Origin: Morchella semilibera
Taxonomy: Eukaryota; Ascomycota; Pezizomycetes; Pezizales; Morchellaceae
Reading direction: 5' to 3'
DNA: 64,000 bases
NCBI GenBank assembly: GCA_009192285.1
Contig: WBVU01000009.1
Coordinates: 186,001 to 250,000, forward strand
Numbering within the stretch: position 1 is the first letter of the stretch; the number at the start of each line of letters is the position of its first letter. Positions 2,086-41,117 of this stretch are shown here, one piece after another. Under the pieces are notes generated by a model. The model had not been told where the DNA came from. It saw only the letters and a program-made list of their open reading frames with translations, and did not search any database. Made by a program: the position numbers and the translations under genes.

Positions 2086-2095
2086 NNNNNNNNNN
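2086..2095. other. Assembly gap (10 N)
   Basis: Ten Ns separate the repeat debris on the left from the telomere-type array on the right. The fixed, tiny size suggests a scaffolding placeholder of unknown true length. Confidence 0.95.
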
Positions 2096-2097
2096 AT

Positions 2098-2265
2098 CTA
2101 ACCCTAACTAACCCTAAACTAACCCTAACTAACCCTAACTAACCCTAACTAACCCTAACTAACCCTAACTAACCCTAACTAACCCTAACTAACCCTAACT
2201 AACCCTAACTAACCCTAACTAACCCTAACTAACCCTAACTAACCCTAACTAACGAACCCTAACGG
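2098..2265 (+). repeat. Telomere-type tandem array, 10-nt unit
   Basis: About 15 head-to-tail copies of AACCCTAACT, with one CTAAA variant near 2114 and two degenerate units at the right edge (2254-2265). The G-rich complement is AGTTAGGGTT, i.e. TTAGGG plus an extra TTAG. The C-rich strand reads 5' to 3' on the plus strand, the orientation of a left chromosome end. It abuts the gap on the left and the 3' end of a minus-strand gene on the right. Confidence 0.9.
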
Positions 2266-3972: not shown

Positions 3973-4325
3973 TGAAAAATTGTCAAGGGTTTCCCTTAAG
4001 TTTTTTTTTTTTCGTAGGTTGTATTAGTATTTTCTTCGTATCACCTGGTATGCCATACCAGTTGACCCAGAAAGGGAAGTGATTTACCTTAATGTTGTCG
4101 GAGGTGGCGGAGATGTTACCCTATTACTCGGGGGTGGGGATCGATATATATATTCCGTCACGTTACACGAAAGATTATGTAATGATTACTAATCTGGATT
4201 TTTCGTTACTAATTTAAATCTTTATTTGTAATGGATTACAAATAAACGATTATGTAATCGGTACATAACACATTGATTACGTAATCGATACATTAAAGCA
4301 TGTACTTTTTCCATATAAATTTTGT
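3973..4325 (-). repeat. Upstream module, copy A
   Basis: Direct repeat of 6313-6655, diverged but colinear. Shared blocks include a poly-T/GTAGGTTG stretch, the ~46-bp palindrome-centred motif, GGGAAGTGATTTACCTT, a TATATATATTCCG block, a GTTACACG block and GATTACGTAATC-type palindromes. Each copy sits upstream of a minus-strand gene, so it may be a shared promoter or a duplicated element part. Confidence 0.7.
4036..4081 (+). repeat. Palindrome-centred motif, copy 1
   Basis: Core TGGTATGCCATACCA at 4046-4060 has perfect 7-nt arms around one central base. It is flanked by CTTCGTATCAC on the left and a GTTGACCCAGAAAGGGAAG stretch on the right. Four other copies occur in the first 14 kb, two of them in inverted orientation inside a retrotransposon intron. 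Arms and spacing suit a dimeric DNA-binding protein site. Confidence 0.8.
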
Positions 4326-6312: not shown

Positions 6313-6655
6313 GGGAAAAATTATAAAGGATTTCCCCTTGAATTTGATTTGATTGGTGGTTGCATTAGTATTTTTCTTCGCATCACCTGGTATGCCATAC
6401 CACTTGAACCAGAAAGGGAAGTGATTTACCTTGAGCTTGTCGTAGTCGGGTGTTGATGTTACCCTATCGCTCGGGGTGGACCTTCCATATATATATTCCG
6501 CGATAGTTACACGGATGATTACGTAATCTTCAATGGTATAGTTAATTAAATTTGTAACAATTGATGCTGATTACTAATCGCCTATACATATTTGATCTTG
6601 CATGATTATGTAATAGGTACATTTGAGCATGTATCTTCTCTATATAATGATGGCA
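6313..6655 (-). repeat. Upstream module, copy B
   Basis: Second copy of the module at 3973-4325. The blocks occur in the same order and orientation with many substitutions and small indels, so the duplication is not recent. It lies 340 bp upstream of the start of the 341-aa minus-strand gene. Confidence 0.7.
6377..6422 (+). repeat. Palindrome-centred motif, copy 2
   Basis: Core TGGTATGCCATACCA at 6388-6402 with the same flanks as copy 1, embedded at the equivalent place in module B. Confidence 0.8.
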
Positions 6656-6788
6656 TCGACCCCTAAAGACTTGCAAGTTTCTGAAACCTCGATCGATTAG
6701 TCAGCAATACTTCCTCTTCGGGTCTCCGAACATTATTGTTTTCTTTTTACTGGTGAGTGATAACATTTGTTTCTTTATTTGTTGATCG

Positions 6789-6834
6789 CTTCCCTTTTTG
6801 TATCAAGTGGTATGGCATACCAGGTGATACAAGA
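6789..6834 (-). repeat. Palindrome-centred motif, copy 3 (inverted)
   Basis: Core TGGTATGGCATACCA at 6808-6822, opposite in orientation to copies 1 and 2, with CTTCCCTTTTT to its left and GTGATAC to its right. It lies about 400 bp before the retrotransposon ORF1 start. Confidence 0.8.
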
Positions 6835-7222
6835 AAAAATACTAAAGCTACAATCGTTAAAAAAGACCTCCTGAGAGAACCTCTCCTAAATTTCCTACTT
6901 GCCCAAAGAAAAATTCTCCACATATAAAACGTTATATGGTCTGGTATATCGATTTTGTATTGGTGTGATATTCTTGCTTCACTGCTTTGTTCAGATTCTG
7001 TGCCCTTGCTAATTTTACCGTTTCCATCTTATCCTGTATTAGACGTTTACATACAATTCCTCCATTATTATATTCGCATTAGTCGAGTCTCCAATCTGTC
7101 CGAAACCCCATACGTACGGTTTGAGTCATATCCTACATAGGTCGCGTGGACTATCTGACGCGGACACCCATTTGTCCGAAGTGGTGTCGGGTGACTGTTG
7201 AAATATTATCTCGTGTGCAGTT

Positions 7223-8829
7223 ATGGATATGAGGTCTAGCCTTAAGCCTGCGAGGCTTGAGGATGGAAGGTTACAGCTATCGGAACGCCTCTATGATTTG
7301 TTTAACGAAAGATTGTATTGTCCGGCGTGTGGTAGGACTAGGAAACGGGGTACATTTAGGAAGAACAATGCGGGGAATGCCAACAAGCAAGGTGAAAGAT
7401 ATCGGCGTTATGTGTGTACGTGTGGCGACTTGCAGGTTTGGGGGAGTCGGAGTACTGTGGCTGAGGGGGATAACTATACACCCTGTGGTAAGACGCTTGG
7501 TACCAGGGATTTCATTCAACTCTGCTGTCAACATGAAGGCATCGGCAAGGAAAGGGTGGAAGCTGTTCGCATGGCCTTGGGGTCAAACCCCTCTATACAG
7601 GGCGTAAGCAACCGGAAACTCAAGCGTGGACATGAGATCACTTTTGGTCTCGACGATGACTATGACCGGGATGGAAGTAATGGCAAGGGTGGGAGGAACG
7701 ATACCACAACGAATCGACAAATACTGGAGGTCAGACCTAGCAAGAGGACACTTACAGTGAATGGTCCCATCTCTGTCGAGAATGATCCTATTGATGGTTC
7801 AGGTCAGTGTTTTTAATGATATCTATATTCCAATTAACCAACCTCTCACCCCTAATTCCCTCCCTCCCCCCACCCTCCCTCTCCCTGACTAACCACCTGT
7901 TCCCAATAATTCGTTTTACCGTTATTCATTCCTCCCCCCTCTGGAATCGATTGTTTGCCACCCACACCCCACCCCCCCTTGATCCAATACTGATTGTAAC
8001 CTCTCCTGGGGGTTGTAACTGATGATGATGTGTGGTTGAAATCAGATCAACCACCATTGAATGTTTTGGGAAGATCCATTCGTACAGAGATTGAGGACGT
8101 TCCAGCCACTGAGATTGATAGTCGATCCTCCACACTTACTGGCAAAGCCCAACTGATTGAATCCTTGAGGAACGATATCTGTGAGCTGCGAAAACATATT
8201 GATAGCGGTAAAGTACAGATAGATTTGGCGATTGAGCGTCTGGAATCATTGGAGAAGGGAATCACTTCTGGCTCCTATCACCGGGTTAGACATGGACCTT
8301 GGGATTATCTTCACTCCGATGATACCAACCGTTCCAAACCCAAGGTGGAGATGAAGACGATCACACCTCGATTGGACAAAGGGAAATCGGTTGCCACGAG
8401 GGCTGTTGGTTCATATGACGATAATAATCCTGTGGTTGTTCCACCTGTCATGGAACGTGCAAGAACGCTACCACAACGACCGTTATTTACAAACCTGAAG
8501 GCTTCTGAGCCAATGCCTTTATTACACACTCACTATCGCCACCTCTATGTTGTTGGTTTCAAACGACAAGCATTGGGATTGATCCGTCGTTGTCTAAAGG
8601 TGGACCTCAAGATACAACCGCGGCATGTGATAAACCTTAGCTGGGTCGATGATACTGTGTTGGAGATGATTGTATCCCTCAAGCACGTTGTTGGTATTCA
8701 GAATATCATTGCGGCTAGTTCGGAACTTACACTACTTAAAGCATTTGACCCGTTAGATCCGAGTAGTTACCGACAAACAAAGGATAGGTATGATATTCCC
8801 AGTGGCTCAAATACTACTACTACTACTAT

Positions 8830-8894
<65 letters not shown>

Positions 8895-9655
8895 ACACTA
8901 CTACTACCAGCACTGGTACCAACACTCCTCCATCTCTGGATATGGGTAGTTCGGATTCTCGGAGTCGCAATACTCTTCGTAGGATGTTTATCGGTCGTAT
9001 GGCTTTATCGGCGTCCAGTACAAAGAACGAGAAGACCAGATCCTATATCGAAGCTTGGATGAACAACCGGGGATGGGGAAGAGAATTCAATGGTATCCTT
9101 CAACGTACCGCTGGGTCGGGAAAGAACGACGATGGGAAGATTGTTGCTGTTGATGAAACGGGAATGGATTTGGATATGAATGTAGATGTCATATCTGATA
9201 TTGATATCGGTGATGGGAACTTCAAGTTGGATGCTAGTGTTTTGAGGTCGGCTATGGATCACACTTGGCCGTCGACACCGAAGGCGACTAGCTCACGTAC
9301 TGCTGCTTCTATTGTTGATCCGATTGCCACCGATACCATCACTACCACATCCACTACTGGCCAGATTGGGACCAAAACCAACGATACCTTTAACCACGAA
9401 ACCTCTCCTATTCCTGCACTGAATGCTAAGGTTCATTTTTCCGATCGGGACTTGGGACGTTTGGATGGTCGTTCATCGGGGGGTAAATCTGCTGATGGTG
9501 TGGGTGAGAAGAGTAGGGACTATATATCTGATTGGAATACCTGGAGAACCTTTGGCTCCAATGTCGATGGGATTCCTACTGGTGACATTAAACATGGTGA
9601 TGAACGTTCGCGCTCCGCATATATTTCTATGGAGCTATCGGACTCGGAATGTTGA
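7223..9655 (+). CDS. Non-LTR retrotransposon ORF1 protein (two exons)
   Basis: Exons 7223-7802 and 8046-9655 join in frame (phase 1, GTCAGT donor, ATCAG acceptor) to give 729 aa. Exon 1 has a zinc-ribbon-like set of cysteines: C33-x2-C36, C65-x-C67 and C88. Exon 2 begins with a short coiled coil (about residues 235-265). Then comes an RRM-like fold (DNA about 8527-8740; LYVVGFKRQALGLIRR then a VIELSW/EMIV-type strand pattern), as in the nucleic-acid-binding ORF1 of other fungal LINE elements. A poly-Thr stretch is encoded by an ACT microsatellite at 8812-8907. The C-terminal third is acidic and probably disordered. The protein would bind element RNA and form the RNP with ORF2p. The stop overlaps the ORF2 start (ATGTTGA). 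Frame continuity across the intron makes it unlikely to be a chance open frame. Confidence 0.85.
7803..8045 (+). other. Predicted intron 1 of retrotransposon (ORF1)
   Basis: 243 bp, GTCAGT donor and AAATCAG acceptor, with GTAACTGAT as a branch-like site about 25 nt before the acceptor. The interior is rich in CCCTCCC pyrimidine runs and has stops in the ORF1 frame. Removal restores one frame by completing a GAT codon across the junction. Confidence 0.75.
8812..8907 (+). repeat. ACT trinucleotide microsatellite in ORF1
   Basis: About 30 ACT units with a few interruptions (ATT, AAC, ACC). It encodes a poly-Thr linker and keeps the frame open. Confidence 0.95.
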
Positions 9656-12600
9656 GCGTTAATGGTCTCTTATCGAGGGGTGGGAATGAGGGTGAAGGGG
9701 ATGATGGGGGTTGTGGGGGGGGAACTTATAGGGGTGATACTGTTATGCTGGAGGGGAGTATGAATCATGTTTTCAAGTTACGTATAGGATATATAAATGT
9801 TCGAGGGTTGACTGATGCAAAATTTTACCGGTTGGTTTCTATGTTGGGACGGGTCTATGATTTTTTGTTTGTCGCGGAGACGTGGTATATCGATCATCGA
9901 AATAGGTTGGGTAATCCTGCTATTGTTGGATCGACGGTTCTTCCTGTTGGACATTCTCGACGGTACTCTAAGGGAAGGATGGGTGGTGGGGTCTATCTCT
10001 TGGCATCTGATGTTTGGCGTTCTTCGATCCTAGAGGTGAAGGGAGATCTGTATGGGATATTTGTACGACTGAAAGGGCTTACATTTGCGGGTGTCTATTA
10101 CCCACCGACCTCGCTGGCGATTGACTGTCTTGAGGATCACCTTTTACGACTGGCACCTGTTCAATTGCTACTTGGCGATATCAATACTAGGTTCCCTGGT
10201 CAGGAAAGAGCTGGACCCGGCGATAGGGTTCGTGTCTTCCATCGATGGCAGTCACTGCGTGGTATGAAGAGATTACTTCCTGATCCTAAGTCACCGGTAC
10301 TTCAGCTTGGTACGGATCATGCTTTTGTATCTGTCTCTTTGCAGGGTGACATGATACCGGTGTCTGATAGGGATGGCACGACGGATCTCAAACTGCTTCG
10401 TTGCTCCGATTTATGTATAGATACCGATCATCCGTACCTGTTGCTTGCCTCTGTTCTTGCTTCAAATATCCAGCGGAATGGATTGATGGCATCCGATGTT
10501 TCAACCGCAGCTAGTCCATCATATGATGATGCCTGTGATGTCCTAAGATTCAGAATCAATAAGCTCAGAGGCTGCTTGCATCGTAAGGGTACCGTAGGAG
10601 GGCCCTCAACTGTACTGGAGGAGAAGCGGGAGGAGGAGGAGGAGGATGATGATGACGACGATGATGATGATGATGATGATACTGGTGTGAGTGATTCTGG
10701 ATTACCGAATTGTGATATCGAGAGTGCTAGGAAGGGAAGAAAAAGAAAAAGAAGGAGGGGGAAATGGAGGGAGAGGATTGGGAAGGGGAAGGAGAAGGGG
10801 AAGGGGAGGGGAAATGAGAACGGGAAAGGGAACGGGAAAGAGAACGGGAAGGGGAACGGGAAACGAGGATTGCCAGTAGTGGACAAGGTATCAACTGATG
10901 GTGTTGATAATAATGATGATGGAACATGTGATCGATTTCGAGACTCTTGGAAGTTGATGGAAGAACTCAGCAGAATGGATGATGTCTCTGAGGAATTTGA
11001 TGTTGATATGCTTGATGCTTTGCTGATTGGTAAGGTTCAGGCGGTCTCGCAGGCGGTGCTGGGTATGATACGACCTAGGCGTGAAAGGGAGCGACCCGAT
11101 GGACATGCGATCAAACTGTCATGCGGGACCGATATGGGATCGACGATAGGTCTGTTCAAACGGGTACAGAGATCGTCTTTGGATGGGAGGTTTATTGCTT
11201 CCCAGAGTGCAAATCGGACGGCTATGGAGGAATGCTCCGAGAAGTATGAGAGGGTGTACAACCCATCTCGATCTTCATCGACTGCGGGTGGTGGTGGTGA
11301 TGGTGGTGGTGGTGGTGGTGGTGGTGGGGGTGGATATGTTGACACTGGTAATGGTGTTCCCTACTTTGATTGCGCTGGTCGGTACCCATTTGAGGCTGAT
11401 TATTACGACCATGATACCATGGAACGGCTGCTATCGCTTGTATCTGAAAGGAGGGTGGTGGAGTATATTAGGAAATTCCCGAGCACAAAGGCATGTGGTG
11501 AGGATGGTGTGCATATCTTGCAGATGAAGGCTCTCGTTGGCACCTCGTTTGTGACGGATCTTGCGTTGCTCTTTCAGGCTTGCGTCCGCTTCGGGGTGAC
11601 TCCTCGACGATGGAATGGGTCTCTACTCTTCCCCATTCATAAGGATCCTACTAAGCCCTATACCTCTGAGAATACGAGGCCGATTGCGATACTGGTCATG
11701 TTCCGACGGGTGTTTGAGGCTCTTATACTTCCCATGTTTGAGGATCCTTTCTTCCCCTACAACCGACTTGATGGTGCTCAGGCTGGGTTCCGTGCTGGGT
11801 ACTCTACGCTGACGCAGGCTGCGACCTTGCATCACTCGCTCTCCACCGGGATGCTACCGATAGCTGTGTTCCTCGATCTTCAGGCCGCCTATGATATGGT
11901 TGGTAGGGACAGGTTGGTGGCTGTGCTTGTATCGCAGGGGACGCCGCCGCTCCTGATCAGGATCTTGGTTGGATTGATGTTCACCGACATGTCCTACCGT
12001 TTGGTGGTCAATGGGGAGACATCTGGGGTGCTTCGTAGGAGTGTTGGTGTACCTCAGGGATCGCCTCTATCGCCGGCCATATTCAACAAGTTTATTGATT
12101 CCCTCATGCGATTGTTGAATGATCGATCGAGACTACACATTACTGCCAAGTCACCTACACCTACACCTACACCTACACTCACACCTACACCTACACCTAC
12201 ACCTACACCTATACCTACACCTCCCGCTCCACCTCCTACTACTGATTCGGTGCCTGAGATTGAGCTGCGAAGATCTCAACGTTTGATGGGAAGGACTATT
12301 GATAGGTATCGATATGTTCCTGTTGTTGATGTTGATGAGGATGGGGGGGGGGACTCTTCGATGATAGGATTTGATGTTGGCTCTGATGAATGCTCTGAAT
12401 GTGAGTTGACTCCTCTGGGTTACTTGATTAATTGACACTTGATTTGATATCCTGTTTTTTTTTTTTTTTTTTTTTTTGCTGATATGATTTCAGATTATGA
12501 TGATGGTTCCGGTACCGATTCTTCTACGGATTATCATGATGGTGTTGATGATGATGATCCCACGGTTTCCTCCGACGAGGATACGCCTCTGGTCCCTTCA

Positions 12601-14269
12601 CCTTCTGCGAGCTTGGTCATGCCTTCTGCTCTGTTCTTTGCCGACGATGGTGTTTTGATGTGTCGGGATTGGGCTGAGGCTTCCTCGTTGCTGGATATAT
12701 GTGAGCGTTGGGCTGATGATCATGATATGCGGTTCAAAGTGGGCAAGTGTGGGGTTATCGCGTCTGACTCCATGAAGGATCGTTGGCATGCACGCTTGAC
12801 TATGTATGGGCAGCCTATACCTGTGTTGGATACCTACAAGTACTTGGGTTTCCCTGTACGGAGTACCGGGATCGACTTTGAGGCTCATAGGGATAGGATT
12901 GTTGATAAGGCCCTGAAGATGAAGGGTTTCCTGCAGCTCAGCTCCGACCACTGGACTCCGCGTGTGAGGCTCAACATGTTCAAGCTCTTTATACGTCCGG
13001 TCATGGAGTATGGTCTACCGCTGTTTGAACCTTGGATACGTTCTGGGAGTGTGGCTACGTGTGGACGTGATAGGAGGAGGCGATTGCTTGCACCGCTTGA
13101 GGATGCTTGGAAGAGATGCATGATATGGGTGGCTGGTGGTACCTCCAAGCGGGCTCGATTGGCTGGTAACCTGTGTGGTGTCCTCGAGGTGAAGGATAGG
13201 ATGAGGCATCTCCGCTGCAGGTTCCAACATCATATCGATTCCATGCATGCCGATAACCCTCTACGTCGGATACTTGATGGTTTGAAGGGAAAGGTGTTGG
13301 CGAGGGATGTATCTTTGCGGAAACTATCCACGATGATGGCTTTGTATCTACGCAGGGATGACATGTATAGCCTCTTCCTTTCTCAACGGGATCGATTTCA
13401 TGGTCAAGGGTTGAAGGCCAAGCTGGATGACTTTATCTATTGGAGGAAGGCGGTGACTATTTGCGATAGGGAACGTGGGATTGCTGGAACTCTGTCTTAT
13501 ATTGTTGAACCTGATGCCAGACTGAAGGGTTTGGATGCTGTTGCGGTACTTGGTATGTTATGATTCAGTGTTTTGTTACTGCCCTCCCCTCCACCCCTCC
13601 ACCCCTCCACCCCTCCTCTCCCCCTCCCCCCTCCACCCCAATCCCCTTCTCACCCTCATTCGACGATCGACTTCCCTTTTTGGTTCAACTGGTATGGCAT
13701 ACCAAGTGATACGAAGTACTCCAATACCTTTTTCCCCTCTTCTGACAGCTCACTTCCCTTTTTGGTTCAACTGGTATGGCATACCGGGTGATACGAGGTT
13801 GACTCTTGCATGTGATTTTCTTTTTATATTAATCTCTTTTAATTTATTATACACACCTTATGCTCTGTTGATGTTTTTTTTTTTTTCTGTTGACTGATTT
13901 TTGATTGTATGATTTGTAGGTATATCTGATCCTGGTATGCAGACTATGCTGTGGGATTGGAGGAGGGGTCTTTACTGTTTTGGTCGGAAATGTCTCTGTG
14001 GTGAGAGGTGGGATAGGGGTCACACTAGATGTATGGCTCTGGAGCATGTATTGAACGATGAGGAGAGGGCTATGATGGAGTTTGATCGACTGTTCCACCC
14101 TCCCGACACCAAGTATACAGTTATCGATTACCTGTTGAACATCAAGGCTCACGATAGGGCCTACCGGATATTGACTGATTGGAATAAATGTCTTGCTGAT
14201 GCGTTCAGGGCGGAGGAGGCTGAAAGATTGTTGATGGTGGACGGGGGACTGGGAGGGTATGGAGGATAA
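9649..14269 (+). CDS. Non-LTR retrotransposon ORF2: APE endonuclease and RT
   Basis: Exons 9649-12400, 12494-13552 and 13920-14269 join in frame (both introns phase 1) to give 1386 aa. Residues 40-270 form an APE-type endonuclease with the expected INVRG, AETW, LLGDINTR and TDH motifs. Reverse transcriptase follows: AVFLDLQAAYD with catalytic Asp about 743, VPQGSPLSP about 801-809, and FADD about 966-969. Between the last two is about 100 extra residues of Pro/Thr repeat and acidic sequence, and intron 2 lies in that insertion. After the thumb (KYLGF; FIRPVMEYGLPLF) the last exon holds a Cys/His knuckle (C-x4-C-x-C-x7-H-x2-C). Low-complexity inserts (Asp, Gly/Lys/Asn, Gly runs) sit between domains. 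Endonuclease plus RT implies target-primed reverse transcription. All key catalytic residues are present, so it may be active. ATG overlaps the ORF1 stop. Confidence 0.88.
10630..10680 (+). repeat. GAG/GAT microsatellite coding acidic run
   Basis: GAGGAG then GATGAT units within ORF2 encode a Glu-Asp run, followed at 10735-10862 by a Gly/Lys/Asn-rich AGGGGAA-type repeat. Both fall in the linker between endonuclease and RT. Confidence 0.9.
11286..11333 (+). repeat. GGT microsatellite coding poly-Gly
   Basis: About 15 GGT-type units give a Gly run in the ORF2 linker just before the RT domain. Frame is preserved. Confidence 0.9.
12152..12222 (+). repeat. ACACCT hexamer repeat coding Pro-Thr
   Basis: Tandem CCTACA/ACACCT units encode alternating Pro-Thr within the insertion that separates the RT QGSPLSP and FADD motifs. 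Confidence 0.9.
12401..12493 (+). other. Predicted intron 2 of retrotransposon (ORF2)
   Basis: 93 bp, GTGAGT donor, a T-run of more than 20 bases as polypyrimidine tract, GCTGAT branch-like site and TTTCAG acceptor. Read through, the frame stops at 12433-12435, before the FADD motif; removal restores it by completing a TAT codon. Without splicing the RT would lack its second pair of catalytic aspartates. Confidence 0.82.
13553..13919 (+). other. Predicted intron 3 of retrotransposon (ORF2)
   Basis: 367 bp, GTATGT donor, a T-rich stretch, TTGACTGAT branch-like site and TTTGTAG acceptor. Removal joins the thumb region to the Cys/His exon in frame (GGT codon across the junction). It contains two copies of the palindrome-centred motif. 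Confidence 0.82.
13671..13798 (-). repeat. Palindrome-centred motif, copies 4 and 5 in tandem
   Basis: Cores at 13690-13704 (perfect) and 13772-13786 (one end mismatch) lie 82 bp apart inside intron 3. Both have CTTCCCTTTTTGGTTCAAC on the left and GTGATACGA on the right, the same orientation as copy 3. Confidence 0.85.
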
Positions 14270-14887
14270 TGATTAGTTAGGGTTCTTTCTTTTGTTTTTT
14301 TTGTTTCTTTTGATCGTATATCTCTGCTCCTTATCTTCCTTTTGTCTCTATCATGTGTTCCTTTTTCCTTTTTTTCCATCGATTGTTTCCGCTGGTCTAT
14401 ATATGGTTGGCGGTTTACTTTGGGGTGGTTTGTGGTAGGTCTGGGGCCGCTAAGTTGGGATGCAGGTCTTGTACTGGTGTCTTGGCTTGAGGTATGCGTT
14501 TGTCATGCCTCTTTTCGCTTGGTGTGTTGTTTTTCTGGAGGTGTCGCTTCTGTGCTTCTGGTTAGTCCTGGTCTTGGGGTTGCGCCTCTTTGTGGCTGGG
14601 CTGTTGAGGTTTCTGGAAGTGTTTTGGTCTTCGCTGGACTGTTTGTAAGTACCTGACTGTTGGGGGATTGCGTCTCTCTGTTTGGTTGGGCTGCGGTTCG
14701 GGTGGGGGCTCTCCTCCCTCGCATGGGTTTCTAGTTGTGGGTCTCTTGTGTCCTCCCTTCTGATCTTCCTGCACTGATCCGGAAAGGCGGTGTTGGGGGC
14801 TTGAGGAATGTGGTAGTTTGATCGGGGCTCCTGGGATTCCCCTTAGCTTGAGTAGATAGTAAATAAACTTGATCACTAACCCTAACT
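14270..14887 (+). mobile_element. Retrotransposon 3' UTR ending in telomere unit
   Basis: About 620 bp between the ORF2 stop and the end of the element, GT-rich, no gene. AGTTAGGGTT at 14275-14284, directly after the stop, is the exact reverse complement of the telomere unit. AATAAA lies at 14862-14867. The last 19 bases, TTGATCACTAACCCTAACT (14869-14887), finish with one full telomere unit, and unrelated sequence follows. The same 19 bases recur at 22969-22987. Confidence 0.7.
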
Positions 14888-22968: not shown

Positions 22969-22987
22969 TTGATCACTAACCCTAACT
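22969..22987 (+). repeat. Second copy of the retroelement terminal 19-mer
   Basis: TTGATCACTAACCCTAACT is identical to the last 19 bases of the retrotransposon at 14869-14887, including one telomere unit. Upstream sequence shares only a short AGTAGA block, so it is either a severely truncated or unrelated-family insertion, or an old telomere junction. Confidence 0.6.
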
Positions 22988-35382: not shown

Positions 35383-38300
35383 CTAGGCGCCCGTGTGAAT
35401 GAATGATGCCCAGATAAGCGGCTGCTTCAAATATCGCCCCCATAAACTCTTGACCGCTCTGTGAAATGAAATAGCAACTTTCGCATGATCTATGACACCC
35501 TCACTCTCGAAGAGAAACCTGTAAAACTCGACCGCTACCTCCTTACAAGCCTCATCATTCGATTCCCATAGAGATGCAAGAACATGGCTGAAACCGGCCA
35601 GCTGGAATCCGCTGGCAATATGAAGTGACTCGTTTTCTAGCTTGCCTGAACTGTTCACTGCAGTGGAGCAGGCCGATAGGTATGCTATCTGGCCGCCTCG
35701 AATTCTTTTGCTGGCTACAGCATCAACAGTCAAGCGGTCAATGCTTTCTTCCCCTGTCTCATTGGTCTTGAGGAGCTGTAGGTGGCTGTTGGAGGGGGAC
35801 TTTTCATCAGTGACGCCATGGCAGGCAAAATGCACGAGCTTGCGACTTTCTAGCTCCCTAGAGACACGACCGGCACTTGGCCTCTCTAACAACGTACAAT
35901 TAGCTCCGACAATTACACTAGAAATCATTGCAACCTCCTCGCTCACTCCCGGAAGAGAGTTCTTTCCCGGTGTCGTGGGCATTGTAATTAAAAGAACGCT
36001 GGTATCATCCTCACTAAAGTCCAGCCGCTTCTCCCGGGCATATAACAGAGACTTGATCGTCGGAATATAGGATGAGACGGCCCGGCACATGGCGTAGTTA
36101 CCGCTTGAAGTGTCCGAGTAATCGCCTGCCGCATGGAAAGGCGCCTGAGCCAATGCGCCAACACCAATCCACCAAATACGAGGAAGAGAGCTACCTTCCA
36201 CGTGGGGTAAAAACTTGAGCTCTTGAAATACTGGTTCCACCGTTGTGGTCCAAAGCCATAGTAAGACGTCGCTGAGCCTTTGATTTCTGGCCCTATAAGT
36301 CTTTTTCGAACCACGGATGATTTCTCGATTGAACCCCCCCAAGTATCTTTTCACATCGTTAATTAATAATAAAGGTAATGAGAGTGCTTTAATCGCAGTC
36401 CTTGTCACGATGATTGCATTACTCTGCAGTACTGGCGAGCAGGTGATGGTGATTATCGGGCCTTCGCCGGCAACTCTCATAAGCTCTTCCTCGCTTGGGG
36501 GAAGTTGAAACCTTGTGAATCCGGGCAGCTCTCTGATGTACACTAGCATTTCTTCAAATTGCTCGATTGTTTTGATTCTTTTAGCCCGGACCTCCTCATA
36601 ATTGCTGCCGTCATATACCATGGCAGAGTCGATCTCCATTCGATGTTGGTTAAACGATTGAAAGACGTCGGGATGCTGGGCTTCCAAGACCGAGAGATCA
36701 TTCCGGCAGTTGATCGAATTTCCAATGATGAGCCCTCTCGTCAACTCTAGCATCTTCAGACAATAGCCAGCTGACCTGCCTGCTTTAAGTGCTGCTGAAC
36801 AACATAGTCCAGAGATATCAGGCACACCAGAAAGCCGATACTCTAAATCGTTTCGTTGGAGATGATATGAAGTCAACTGTGGTAAAAGATCGATGGCCCT
36901 TTCAAAAAGCCTGAGTGCTTCATGAAACCTGTCCGCAGATAAGAGCATAGTACAGGTGTGTAATGCGCTTTGAATTCGTATCGAAGGATGTGAAACGATG
37001 CAATCAAAGGCCTCCAATCCCTTCTCAACTACCAAGTGGTGATCAGGCATGCATCCGAGTTCTGAAGTGAATTTGAGGGACACGGAAGTGACAAGGTTCA
37101 GCAGAAGACCACCACGTCGTGGGCTATTTGGGGGCGTGCATGCAATCGCATCTTCAAGCAAGCTTATAGTGGAATCAAGATCCTTAATATCCCCTTTAGA
37201 TTTGTATCTGGCCTTAAACAGCATAGCCCGTGAGTTCAAAGCAGTTAGCCTGTATAAATCACCGATAGGGACTTTCTCTAATATACCCGAAGAATATCCG
37301 AAGGCAATTTCGAGGTCCTTGGCTTCACCGAGAAGGCAATATCTTTCATTAAGATAGTTTACGAGATTGTTCAACACGGGTGGCGCCCAATGATGCTCAG
37401 GAGGTACGCTCTGTAATGCCTCTGAGCTATAGGTGATAGCCAGGTGAAGGTCATTGATGTCGCCTAGACGTTGAAATCGGCTGTCAATCAAGGCCCCGAG
37501 ATTGTTCAACCTTGACGGCTTGTCCGCATGCCCCTGAGGGGTGGCCTGAACTGCCTCTGAACCATAGGTGATAGAAAGGTGAAGGTCATCGATATCGCCT
37601 AGACGCTCATATCTCTCCTGTATATATGTCGAGAGGTTATTCAAGATCTTCACCCTGTCACTATGTTCTCGTGGTATGGTCTTGAGGGCCTCTGAAGTAT
37701 GGGTGATAGCCAGGTGAAGGTCATTGATGTCGCCTAGACGTTCAAGTCGGCTGTGAATCTTGGTCCCGAGATTGCTCAACATTGACGGCTTGTCCGCATG
37801 CCCCTGAGGGGTGGCCTGAACTGCCTCTGAACTATAGGTGATAGAAAGGTGAAGGTCATCGATATCGCCTAGACGCTCATATCTCCCCTGTATATATGTC
37901 GAGAGGTTATTCAAGATACCCGCCCTGTCACTATGTTCTCGTGGTATGGTCTTGAGGGCCTCTGAAGTATGGGTGATAGCCAGGTGAAGGTCATTGATGT
38001 CGCCTAGACGTTGAAATCGGCTGTCAATCAAGTTCCCGAGATTGTTCAACATTGACGGCTTGTCCGCATGCCCCTGAGGGGTGGCCTGAACTGCCTCTGA
38101 AGCATGGGTGATAGCCAGGTGAAGGTCATTGATGTCGCCTAGACGTTGAAATCGGCTGTCAATCAAGTTCCCGAGATTGTTCAACATTGACGGCTTGTCC
38201 GCATGCCCCTGAGGGGTGGCCTGAACTGCCTCTGAAGCATGGGTGATAGCCAGGTGAAGGTCATTGATGTCGCCTAGACGTTCAAGTCGGCTGTGAATAA

Positions 38301-39630
38301 AGTCCCCGATATTGCTCAACCTTGACGGCTTGTCCGCATGCCCCTGAGGGGTGGCCTGAACTGCCTCTGAACTATAGGTGATAGAAAGGTGAAGGTCATC
38401 GATATCGCCTAGACGCTCATATCTCTCCTGTATATATGTCGAGAGGTTATTCAAGATACCCGCCCTGTCACTATGTTCTCGTGGTATGGTCTTGAGGGCC
38501 TCTGAAGTATGGGTGATAGCCAGGTGAAGGTCATTGATGTCGCCTAGACGTTGAAATCGGCTGTCAATCAAGTTCCCGAGATTGTTCAACATTGACGGCT
38601 TGTCCGCATGCCCCTGAGGGGTGGCCTGAACTGCCTCTGAAGCATGGGTGATAGCCAGGTGAAGGTCATTGATGTCGCCTAGACGTTCAAATCGGCTGTG
38701 AATCAAGTTCCCGAGATTGCTCAACCTTGACGGCTTGTCCGCATGCCCCTGAGGGGTGGCCTGAACTGCCTCTGAACCATAGGTGATAGAAAGGTGAAGG
38801 TCATCGATATCGCCTAGACGCTTATACCTCTCCTGTATATATACCGAGAGGTTACTCAAGATACCCGCCCTGCCACTATGTTCTCGTGGTATGGTCTTGA
38901 GGGCCTCTGAAGTATGGGTGATAGCCAGGTGAAGGTCATTGATGTCGCCTAGATTTTCAAACCTGATGTTGATGGAGTTTGCCAGACCCTGCAACCTGCT
39001 TGCCATGTCCTCGTCCCCCTGAGGGGTGTTTTGCACTGCCTCTGAAACCTGGGAGATGCAAAGGTGGAGGTCATTAATGTCACCTAGATGCTTAAATCTT
39101 TCACAAATACGGCATGCGAGGTTGTTCAAAGCTTTCAACCTATTCACCTCACTTATGCCGGGTACCTCCATCAGTTCAGTGGTGTACCTGATGGAGGCTT
39201 CGAGGTCGTCCAAGTTGCTGCCAAAACGCTTATATCTCTCGTGCAGAAGCCTGGAGAGCGAAAATCCGATAGCAAGAGCGCCCTCGGAGGTTTCAGGAGC
39301 CATGATTTGAATTTGGGTAATTGCCTGGGTAAGTTCTCTCTCTCCCTTGGTTCGGTCGTACTCTTCAACAAGACTGTCACACCGTAGAATTAAAGAGCCC
39401 TCAGCAGAACTAGACTGATCGCGCATCCCAATGAGCATACCCAAGAGTTGGTTAGCCATGCTACCAGACTCCGCTGCCTGTGACATTTCAACAGCGATAT
39501 CAAGAATGGTGTTGTCTTGCGTTGCTTCAAAGGCCCCGAGTAAAAGCATTATACTGTTCGCGACTTCATCGCGTTGGGTTTGCGCTTGCAAATCAGGCAA
39601 CGACGCGATGGTTATTCTGGCTCCCGACAT
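35383..39630 (-). CDS. TPR-CHAT caspase-like protease, 1415 aa
   Basis: Single-exon gene. Residues 1-180 are helical with TPR-like character. Residues about 182-766 are 13 tandem 45-aa TPR-type units (LGDINDLHLAITHxSEAxxx), many 90-100% identical to one another; two or three diverged units follow. Residues about 1130-1415 form a CHAT domain: KxLVHFACHG with catalytic His about 1271 and AYLSACSTA with catalytic Cys about 1321, the usual 50-residue spacing of caspase-like CHAT proteases. A WWIGVGALAQAPFHAAG block and a C-terminal GFQLAGFSHVLASLW block complete the fold. No NACHT or other NTPase domain and no signal peptide. Expected role: a cytosolic receptor-protease whose TPR array senses a ligand and whose protease cleaves a partner. 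It is divergently placed 1.5 kb from a gasdermin-like gene. Repeat homogeneity resembles fungal incompatibility receptors. Confidence 0.92.
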   Translation of the reverse strand: MSGARITIASLPDLQAQTQRDEVANSIMLLLGAFEATQDNTILDIAVEMSQAAESGSMANQLLGMLIGMRDQSSSAEGSLILRCDSLVEEYDRTKGERELTQAITQIQIMAPETSEGALAIGFSLSRLLHERYKRFGSNLDDLEASIRYTTELMEVPGISEVNRLKALNNLACRICERFKHLGDINDLHLCISQVSEAVQNTPQGDEDMASRLQGLANSINIRFENLGDINDLHLAITHTSEALKTIPREHSGRAGILSNLSVYIQERYKRLGDIDDLHLSITYGSEAVQATPQGHADKPSRLSNLGNLIHSRFERLGDINDLHLAITHASEAVQATPQGHADKPSMLNNLGNLIDSRFQRLGDINDLHLAITHTSEALKTIPREHSDRAGILNNLSTYIQERYERLGDIDDLHLSITYSSEAVQATPQGHADKPSRLSNIGDFIHSRLERLGDINDLHLAITHASEAVQATPQGHADKPSMLNNLGNLIDSRFQRLGDINDLHLAITHASEAVQATPQGHADKPSMLNNLGNLIDSRFQRLGDINDLHLAITHTSEALKTIPREHSDRAGILNNLSTYIQGRYERLGDIDDLHLSITYSSEAVQATPQGHADKPSMLSNLGTKIHSRLERLGDINDLHLAITHTSEALKTIPREHSDRVKILNNLSTYIQERYERLGDIDDLHLSITYGSEAVQATPQGHADKPSRLNNLGALIDSRFQRLGDINDLHLAITYSSEALQSVPPEHHWAPPVLNNLVNYLNERYCLLGEAKDLEIAFGYSSGILEKVPIGDLYRLTALNSRAMLFKARYKSKGDIKDLDSTISLLEDAIACTPPNSPRRGGLLLNLVTSVSLKFTSELGCMPDHHLVVEKGLEAFDCIVSHPSIRIQSALHTCTMLLSADRFHEALRLFERAIDLLPQLTSYHLQRNDLEYRLSGVPDISGLCCSAALKAGRSAGYCLKMLELTRGLIIGNSINCRNDLSVLEAQHPDVFQSFNQHRMEIDSAMVYDGSNYEEVRAKRIKTIEQFEEMLVYIRELPGFTRFQLPPSEEELMRVAGEGPIITITCSPVLQSNAIIVTRTAIKALSLPLLLINDVKRYLGGFNREIIRGSKKTYRARNQRLSDVLLWLWTTTVEPVFQELKFLPHVEGSSLPRIWWIGVGALAQAPFHAAGDYSDTSSGNYAMCRAVSSYIPTIKSLLYAREKRLDFSEDDTSVLLITMPTTPGKNSLPGVSEEVAMISSVIVGANCTLLERPSAGRVSRELESRKLVHFACHGVTDEKSPSNSHLQLLKTNETGEESIDRLTVDAVASKRIRGGQIAYLSACSTAVNSSGKLENESLHIASGFQLAGFSHVLASLWESNDEACKEVAVEFYRFLFESEGVIDHAKVAISFHRAVKSLWGRYLKQPLIWASFIHTGA
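37333..39087 (-). repeat. 135-bp tandem coding repeats (TPR units)
   Basis: Thirteen 135-bp units in register within the TPR-CHAT gene. Three unit types can be told apart: THASEAVQATPQGHADKPS, THTSEALKTIPREHSDRAG and TYxSEAVQATPQGHADKPS. They alternate in blocks (about units 2-4, 5-7/8, 9-10, 11-12), so expansion happened by duplication of multi-unit blocks. Units 7 and 8 are identical in protein sequence. Confidence 0.9.
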
Positions 39631-41117
39631 TGCTGGCTTGTGGATCTTTGATGTGTTAGCGCTGTCGCATATTATATAATGTATCCAAGAGTTAGTTGAT
39701 TAGTTTACCTACCCACGCGAGAAATAGTACTGCCTTATGCTTTAACTGAATATATGGGGTCGTGTAGGTGATTTATATATATATATATATGTGTGTCGAT
39801 GATCGAGGACGTTGGGAGGTAGGTATGGATAAGTATGTAGTTATGGGAACGGTTGACCTAATGTCGTTCTGATGTAGGATCGAGTACAAAGGCTGTAATG
39901 TATCTTGACCTCCTTTACCGGCCCTTTTGAGAAGACGATATCTTAAAGCTGACCCCTATAATACGGAACATTAAGTGTACGTGAGGCTCTGCTGGCAAAC
40001 ACCGACAAATGGTATCGCCTCGTGGGGCGCGGCACCGATACCTTAAGAATGTGGTACACGGGGCGATATCGTCTGGCTGGTCTTTCCGGGTTTCAAATCA
40101 CTCCAGCCCGGGCCCGGGCCCGGTCTGGGGGAGGATGCAAGTCCCTGTAGGGGCTCAGGCGTGGATGGTCGCGTCGGGCGCAATGAATGTAAGCCCTGCC
40201 AACGGCTCCAACAGCTACGACCGGATCTCCGAAACCGCATTATTTCCTCCTTTAGTCCAATAGCTATATAGCAATTATATCTCTCACTTGTATATTCGGG
40301 TACCCCCTACCTGGCGCGAGTAGCAAATAAAACCCACAGGTTTACTACAGTAAAGGTTCAAGGCTGAGTCCATAATATGTTAGTTTTTGCCTCAAACCTC
40401 ACCTCTAGACCGATCCCACAAGGCAGCTACAGCGCGGTAGAGTGGGTGTTATCGTGATACCTACACTGAGTGAATGTCAAGCACACCCGCCTTCATGCAG
40501 GTCCCGGGATACCTGGCCCTCCTTAAACAAAAAGCCAGAAGGTCCTGCACCTCTTATTGGCTGCATCCTTACTAAAACTCTCTATTAAATATTGCCGGAA
40601 TTTGCCAAGTCCGGTCGGCCTTGTAGTGTTTTGCGCCTGATGGCAATCGGCGAATAAAACCAAGGGGCCCGGGGGGTTGTGTTCACTGAGGCAGAGATTA
40701 TGGATGTTGCCAATGGCATCACTCCCGGTATCAAGTCGTTCTAGGTGAGCCTCATCCAGTCCTCTTCACAAATCATTACCAACTCACTTCTGTCTGGTAT
40801 GTATAAAAGACAAAAACATACACGTATGCTACTATGGCAGCCTCGTTCGGTCACTCAGCCTCGTAAGGCCTAGGGGCGGTATAGACTGCATGCATTTGAA
40901 GCCTACAGTACTATGTACCGGAACCTCAAACACAAAGGAGGCCTGAGAGTATCGGTCTCGGCCAATGCACCAGCTGAGATATATAACTACGGCAGTCGTG
41001 CACCTGAAATCCTCATATCTTCTTGGAAATTCCCTAGCATCCGTTTCTCCAGTATAAAATCTACAAACGAAACCCTCCACTTCGCTCACATCGCTGATCA
41101 GCAATGTCGTCCCGGCG
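39631..41117. promoter_or_regulatory. Divergent intergenic region between CHAT and partner gene
   Basis: Holds the upstream regions of both the minus-strand TPR-CHAT gene and the plus-strand 414-aa gene. A TA microsatellite lies at 39775-39790 and a GC-rich CCCGGGCCCGGG palindrome near 40106-40122. No other gene supported. Confidence 0.5.

What the first reader, a model, noticed from the sequence alone, without database searches (positions are those of the whole stretch)
7803..13919. Three frame-preserving phase-1 introns in a retrotransposon
Introns 7803-8045, 12401-12493 and 13553-13919 each have good GT-AG signals, and each removal restores one frame across a phase-1 junction. LINEs move through their own RNA and should lose introns. 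Retention means unspliced RNA is the template, the element was domesticated, or introns were gained very recently. Only Penelope-like elements are well known for keeping introns. Intron 2 decides whether the RT has its FADD box, so splicing could switch the enzyme on.
Basis: partly seen in the sequence, partly recalled or inferred. Interest (0 to 1): 0.88.

Follow-up and report, generated by a model that had tools for sequence, protein, structure and literature searches.

The report
Intron-keeping retrotransposon at morel chromosome ends
A jumping gene that sits at the chromosome ends of an edible morel carries ordinary-looking gene introns in every copy that could be checked, although elements that copy themselves through RNA are expected to lose introns, so it is probably copied from unspliced RNA or else spreads as DNA between chromosome ends.

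Summary
The genome is Morchella crassipes (assembly size and longest scaffold match). The element (7223-14887) is a two-ORF LINE whose RT frame needs introns 2 and 3 removed. Of 20 places found that encode its last exon, 16 could be read at that exon's 5' edge: 14 carry intron 3, 2 start inside it, none lacks it. Searches for spliced junctions found nothing. Intron 3 varies from 295 to 500 nt in all three length classes, while dN/dS between two old subfamilies is 0.06-0.15. So introns 2 and 3 are real and old; intron 1 has no sibling to test it. The copies form a chromosome-end family: 36 copies of the 3' tail TTGATCA-CTAACCCTAACT, 27 different flanks at 29 places read; 18 of 36 lie within 5 kb of a scaffold end, all pointing inward. 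Best reading: unspliced RNA is reverse-transcribed onto chromosome ends, while spliced RNA makes the enzyme. Main rival: break-induced DNA copying between ends, which keeps introns for free; one mosaic copy speaks for recombination. Recent intron gain is rejected; domestication is unlikely. No RNA data were available.

The parts
2098..2253 (+). telomere array, 15.5 copies of CTAACCCTAA, right after a 10-N scaffold gap (2086-2095): probably the real chromosome end
   Evidence: unit TTAGGGTTAG named for this fungus in PMC7014384 (passages)
7223..7802 (+). ORF1 exon 1 (cysteine pairs CPACG..CTCG)
   Evidence: one match in the genome; no Pfam family above its cut-off
7803..8045 (+). intron 1, 243 nt, phase 1, GTCAGT..CAG; no sibling available
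8046..9655 (+). ORF1 exon 2, stop TGA 9653-9655
9649..12400 (+). ORF2 exon 1; start overlaps the ORF1 stop (ATGTTGA); endonuclease-like motifs within 9775-10485; first part of the RT
   Evidence: RVT_1 E 1.5e-16; R2 and LINE-1 proteins best in PDB; six EN-like motifs in order, 0 of 200000 shuffles, but no profile support
12401..12493 (+). intron 2, 93 nt, phase 1, in the linker between RT motifs PQGSPLSP and FADD
   Evidence: same site in 7 of 7 covering copies; no spliced B junction in the genome
12494..13552 (+). ORF2 exon 2 with FFADD at 12634-12648
   Evidence: RVT_1 remainder E 0.0014, below the curated cut-off
13553..13919 (+). intron 3, 367 nt, phase 1; holds two tandem palindrome repeats (GGTATGGCATACC)
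13920..14269 (+). last ORF2 exon (exon 4 in the text) with a CCHC-like motif KCLCGERWDRGHTRC (by eye)
14869..14887 (+). 3' end TTGATCA-CTAACCCTAACT, followed by non-telomeric flank
   Evidence: 36 genome matches, reversed control 0; flanks

Best explanation
An intron-bearing LINE family that lives at the chromosome ends of Morchella crassipes. Splicing of the primary transcript gives the mRNA for ORF1 and an intact RT. Unspliced RNA, whose 3' end carries CUAACCCUAACU (complementary to the telomere G-strand), is the template: the 3'-OH of an exposed or short chromosome end primes reverse transcription, copies are usually 5'-truncated, and telomerase or a further copy caps them. Because unspliced RNA cannot encode a complete RT (stop at 12435, before FADD), the enzyme must work in trans on RNA that it was not translated from. 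Shown: introns 2 and 3 conserved in site and phase; no intronless copy among those readable; constraint on ORF2; shared 3' tail with different flanks; inward orientation near scaffold ends; 5' truncation with telomere caps. Inferred: splicing itself, the unspliced template, end priming, action in trans.
For: Intron 3 complete in 14 of 16 readable copies, the other 2 start inside it; no spliced junction. The 13 copies have 12 different 3' flanks. dN/dS between A and B 0.11 (RT), 0.15 (exon 3), 0.06 (exon 4) with pS about 0.7, so RT function was needed while the introns stayed. L033 differs from L035 and from L063 by one residue in 373 each, with no synonymous change: recent spread. Tail register fixed in 18 of 19 B ends found with an anchor that leaves the telomere part open (the nineteenth, C6:224, was not read). 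14 of the 29 places read (13 different flanks) show only 12-14 nt of telomere sequence, short for homologous recombination, enough to prime an RT (recalled rule of thumb). 18 of 36 tails lie within 5 kb of a scaffold end, on 13 scaffold ends, all 18 pointing inward (lengths). 5' ends capped by telomere repeats (L033, L035, second copy of L064, L067, L080) or by the tail of the next element (L066, L061, L067, L064).
Against: No RNA data. Such structures can also arise by break-induced replication, named for the fungal telomeric element MoTeR (passages). L065 is a mosaic: against L033 it has no synonymous difference in 194 codons of exon 3 but 18% in exon 4, which speaks for recombination or template switching between copies. 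No target-site duplication was seen. L065 and L081 join non-telomeric DNA at their 5' ends. The B 5' splice site GTTGGT is not a strong consensus. The two A copies have dN/dS 0.42 in exon 3 (few changes; 0 in exon 4). The fixed tail register would also follow from copying one donor structure.
Confidence: 0.52

Rival explanations
1. The copies spread as DNA. A short or broken chromosome end with a little telomere sequence invades the telomere stretch beside another copy's 3' end and copies the element by break-induced replication; erosion and telomerase make the 5' truncations. Introns persist simply because no RNA step is involved. The RT may act rarely or only in the past.
For: Every readable copy keeps intron 3; the junctions read lie in telomere sequence (which asked for it); MoTeR arrays change by recombination, BIR and truncation with new telomeres (passages); L065 is a mosaic of B sequence.
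Against: ORF2 stayed constrained over the A-B divergence, which copying as DNA does not explain; 14 of 29 places hold only 12-14 nt of telomere sequence; tails with otherwise different upstream sequence (A, B, L075, L079, window 22969) share the last 19 nt (only 20-45 nt upstream seen).
Confidence: 0.33
2. The template is antisense RNA, in which introns cannot be recognised, as proposed for Penelope-like elements.
For: Proposed for Penelope in PMC3846280 (passage); would explain total retention.
Against: The tail with CTAACCC at the 3' end of the sense strand pairs with the telomere G-overhang only as sense RNA (inference). Antisense promoters were not looked for.
Confidence: 0.07
3. A domesticated host gene that kept the RT for chromosome-end upkeep, with the other copies as debris.
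For: Only one copy with ORF1 exon 1 and the endonuclease region was found; purifying selection.
Against: Two subfamilies with truncated copies at different sites, some nearly identical; LINE layout with a shared 3' tail. Full-length B copies must have existed and may just not be assembled.
Confidence: 0.05
4. The intervals are not introns but insertions or frame damage in dead copies.
For: No RNA evidence.
Against: Same site and phase in two subfamilies with GT..AG kept while the interior turned over; constraint on both sides.
Confidence: 0.03

Closest known systems
MoTeR (Magnaporthe), FoTeR (Fusarium), CNL1 (Cryptococcus): fungal telomeric non-LTR elements
   Same: Located at chromosome ends; FoTeR 3' ends are followed by telomere repeats and truncated copies keep them; CNL1 and MoTeR form arrays; MoTeR relics are 3' ends with a short telomere stretch.
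   Different: They group with CRE/SLACS and have a restriction-like endonuclease after the RT; this element has two ORFs, APE-like motifs before the RT and no REL motif seen by eye in its last exon. The word intron has 0 occurrences in the main text of the FoTeR, MoTeR and fungal-telomere papers; for CNL1 the occurrences shown concern the reporter gene.
Penelope-like elements, with the telomeric Athena group
   Same: Retroelements known for introns (Pen5 of Adineta has one; title of the 2003 paper); EN-deficient Athena elements sit at telomeres with telomere repeats added to the truncated 5' end (passages). That Athena itself has introns is recalled, not seen.
   Different: PLE reverse transcriptases form another class, with GIY-YIG endonuclease or none; here R2 and LINE-1 proteins are the best PDB matches.
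HeT-A/TART of Drosophila; GilT/GilM of Giardia
   Same: Head-to-tail chromosome-end arrays of non-LTR elements, some Giardia copies 5'-truncated (passages).
   Different: No introns named for them in the passages seen; Drosophila lacks telomerase repeats.
Other LINE family in the same genome (L010, L019, L022, L023; Tad1-like by layout, label recalled)
   Same: EN and RT of a LINE (Pfam, on L010).
   Different: EN-RT-RNase H in one uninterrupted frame in L010 (1184 aa within the fetched piece), no intron needed; open frames of 921-1186 aa in L019, L022, L023; RT about 26% identical. Other copies of that family are broken.

Membership tests
non-LTR retrotransposon (LINE) | RT of the R2/LINE type | tested here: met
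   RVT_1 E 1.5e-16; R2 1.3e-09 and LINE-1 ORF2p 1.2e-07 in PDB
non-LTR retrotransposon (LINE) | multiple copies with a common 3' end and variable 5' truncation | tested here: met
non-LTR retrotransposon (LINE) | target-site duplications | tested here: inconclusive
   none seen by eye at L065 and L081; other copies are at ends, in arrays or next to gaps
APE-endonuclease LINE clades | APE-like endonuclease before the RT | tested here: inconclusive
   motifs in order (0 of 200000 shuffles, with a pattern set after looking at both proteins), but no Pfam or PDB match, profile comparison not above shuffles (14.4 against up to 19.2 in 100), and the structure model was of no use (pLDDT 29.6)
CRE/MoTeR/FoTeR group | restriction-like endonuclease after the RT, CCHC-RHD-E-PD pattern | tested here: not met
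   last exon read by eye against the pattern given: CCHC-like motif present, RHD..PD not seen; no profile of the REL domain was run
Penelope-like elements | PLE-type RT, GIY-YIG endonuclease | tested here: not met
   best PDB matches are R2 and LINE-1; no GIY-YIG family among the Pfam matches
Tad1 clade | RNase H after the RT and support in an RT tree | tested here: inconclusive
   no RNase H match in the exons after the RT; no reference RTs were available for a tree

The most novel reading that the evidence does not exclude
A LINE with a two-RNA life cycle like that of a retrovirus: spliced RNA is only messenger, unspliced RNA is only template and carries one telomere unit at its 3' end that pairs with chromosome ends; the RT must therefore act in trans, against the usual cis preference of LINEs, and the element lengthens or heals chromosome ends beside telomerase.
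Probability: 0.43. Interest if true: 0.86.

Novelty: new variant of a known kind. Interest (0 to 1): 0.72.

Why it matters
Intron loss is the textbook mark of copying through RNA. A LINE family that keeps conserved introns through divergence near synonymous saturation and through recent spread shows that this mark can fail outside Penelope-like elements, and here at chromosome ends. That makes a question testable in a cultivable fungus: is intron retention a property of the template RNA, or a sign that chromosome-end elements spread as DNA?

Tried and rejected
Recent intron gain: rejected for introns 2 and 3, shared by two old subfamilies. Plain segmental duplication with the neighbourhood: rejected for most copies, 27 different 3' flanks at 29 places read, compared by eye. 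Truly internal copies: three looked internal, but the window copy's telomere array follows a 10-N gap, L033's follows an N, and L063 starts at an N run; the published assembly is 97 contigs joined to 23 scaffolds (passages). Structure prediction of the endonuclease region failed, so no fold search was made. Endonuclease by profile: no support. Clade by RT tree: not possible without reference sequences.

Papers: 10 searches, of open-licence PMC only. In the listings I saw no intron-bearing LINE family at telomeres, but several lists were capped (25 of 86, 15 of 615, 20 of 271, 12 of 13, 15 of 33, 15 of 17 papers) and asked other questions. Of papers I saw listings, abstract starts and passages, plus three sections of PMC12857005. 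Passages on introns in PMC7175516 (DNA transposons, a cryptic intron of the LTR element Tf2), PMC13148404 and PMC5014426 concern other elements or host genes; PMC8226300 was searched for Zepp, Dualen and one phrase only.

Caveats on counts: one search is a capped search (counts are lower bounds); its 21 rows include two of one frameshifted copy, hence 20 places; 2 were not fetched (C22:316, C12:1575517, perhaps allelic twins of C21:316 and C13:1574359) and 2 start inside exon 4 (C4:68, C16:1009434). L034+ and L034- share one 3' flank and may be one insertion mirrored. 7 of the 36 tail sites were not read. One search asks for the telomere part and is biased to it; one search is the less biased one for B. 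One tail, C11:2004746, lies 9 kb from a scaffold end and points outward. Tandem and possibly allelic sites are counted apart in '18 of 36' (13 scaffold ends). On rechecking I added the L065 mosaic and lowered the best explanation from 0.55 to 0.52, raised the DNA rival from 0.30 to 0.33 and lowered the novel case from 0.45 to 0.43.

Full report
Where it is. The window is C23:186001-250000 of an assembly of 56,756,124 bases in 23 contigs. Size, number and longest scaffold (7,341,407, our C1) equal those of Morchella crassipes M10M26 in PMC7014384 (passages), a yellow morel whose telomere unit is given as TTAGGGTTAG. The window has a 10-N gap at 2086-2095, followed at once by 15.5 telomere units at 2098-2253. 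So the element probably lies about 5 kb from a real chromosome end, and the first 2.1 kb of the window probably belong to another contig.

Anatomy. ORF1 (7223-7802, 8046-9655) and ORF2 (9649-12400, 12494-13552, 13920-14269) overlap at ATGTTGA. ORF2 holds endonuclease-like motifs, the RT (RVT_1; R2 and LINE-1 best in PDB) and a CCHC-like motif near its end. The linker between RT motifs PQGSPLSP and FADD is long, of simple sequence and acidic, and intron 2 lies in it. Unspliced RNA stops at 12435, before FADD (12637-12648).

Are they introns? The decisive evidence is comparative. The genome holds two main subfamilies: A (window; C19:2196265, 97% identical over part of exon 3) and B (73% identical in the RT). 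Of 20 places found with the last exon, 16 could be read at its 5' edge: 14 have intron 3 (13; one, with a noisy 5' edge) and 2 begin inside it (L081, L082). None joins exon to exon. Interval lengths are 295 to 500 nt in all three classes mod 3. Intron 2 is present in 7 of 7 covering copies at the same phase-1 site, and B has one more phase-1 intron of 84 nt in the same linker, seen in the 4 B copies with clean sequence there. A and B introns align only just above shuffles, exon 4 far above. Whole-genome searches with up to 3 mismatches for spliced edges found none. Intron 1 rests on its signals, its in-frame stop and its pyrimidine-rich make-up alone, since ORF1 exon 1 has no second copy.

How old? 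Between A and B pS is 0.69 to 0.72 and dN/dS 0.11, 0.15 and 0.06 for RT, exon 3 and exon 4 (Nei-Gojobori, near saturation, so rough). The two A copies differ at about 4% of synonymous sites, with dN/dS 0.42 in exon 3 and no amino-acid change in exon 4; L033 differs from L035 and from L063 by one residue in 373. The introns are thus old and have survived both long divergence and recent spread. Against a simple tree of copies, L065 matches L033 at every synonymous site of 194 exon-3 codons but differs at 18% of them in exon 4: a mosaic, so copies do exchange sequence. Another LINE family of this genome has EN-RT-RNase H in one open frame (L010; open frames also in L019, L022, L023), so intron-bearing LINEs are not the rule here.

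Chromosome ends. The tail TTGATCACTAACCCTAACT occurs 36 times, its reversed control never. 29 of these places were read; they show 27 different downstream flanks. 18 of 36 lie within 5 kb of a scaffold end and all 18 point inward. With an anchor that leaves the telomere part open, 18 of 19 B ends continue into CTAACCCTAACT in the same register. 5' ends are cut at many points and capped by telomere repeats or by the tail of the next element, while L065 and L081 join other DNA. C19:2.194-2.201 Mb shows B on A on B, each joined through short telomere sequence.

Mechanism. Two readings fit: reverse transcription of unspliced RNA primed by the chromosome end, or break-induced replication between ends. 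Long constraint on the RT and the very short telomere stretches at 14 of 29 places favour the first; BIR and recombination in MoTeR arrays (passages of PMC7367193), the L065 mosaic and the absence of any spliced copy keep the second alive. Both may act. If the first is right, template and messenger are different RNAs, and the RT must act in trans.

Compared with what is known. Telomeric LINEs are known in fungi (MoTeR, FoTeR, CNL1), grouped with restriction-like-endonuclease elements. Introns are known in Penelope-like elements, a class that also has telomeric members (passages of PMC3846280). A LINE-type element that combines conserved introns with a chromosome-end habit was not seen in the ten paper searches listed, whose lists were partly capped; this is not proof of absence. 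Hence: a new variant of a known kind.

Noticed in passing
window 2086-2253: A 10-N gap followed at once by a telomere array: scaffold C23 may be two chromosomes joined at a telomere. L033 (single N) and L063 (N run) show the same kind of join.
   Followed up: partly
window 22969-22987: A second copy of the 19-nt tail with quite different sequence upstream, followed by non-telomeric flank; perhaps a further subfamily or a short relic.
   Followed up: no
window 13670-13799; also 4034-4080, 6376-6424, 6785-6838: Intron 3 of A holds two tandem palindromic repeats (GGTATGGCATACC) that also occur in the subtelomere upstream; 9 genome places with up to 1 mismatch. Intron 3 of B holds two copies of a different palindrome (GGTCCACC..GGTGGACC) in most copies.
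   Followed up: partly
L033, L035, L063, L034 (intron of 84 nt): B has an additional phase-1 intron in the RT linker that A lacks, so introns were gained or lost inside this element family.
   Followed up: partly
L065 (C21:3440500-3450400): Mosaic B copy: exon 3 like L033, exon 4 diverged at 18% of synonymous sites.
   Followed up: partly
L081 (C7:1090-1500): A copy that begins inside intron 3, joined to non-telomeric DNA.
   Followed up: partly
L034/L064 (C22:1.660-1.675 Mb): Two B arrays head to head with noisy sequence between them; perhaps an inverted duplication or an assembly artefact.
   Followed up: no
scaffolds C21/C22 and C12/C13: Matches at nearly equal coordinates suggest that these scaffolds are partly allelic duplicates.
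   Followed up: no
window 35383-39699, minus strand: One uninterrupted 1438-aa frame with many tandem repeats of about 50 aa and a C-terminal part that resembles a CHAT domain (label recalled, no search run).
   Followed up: no
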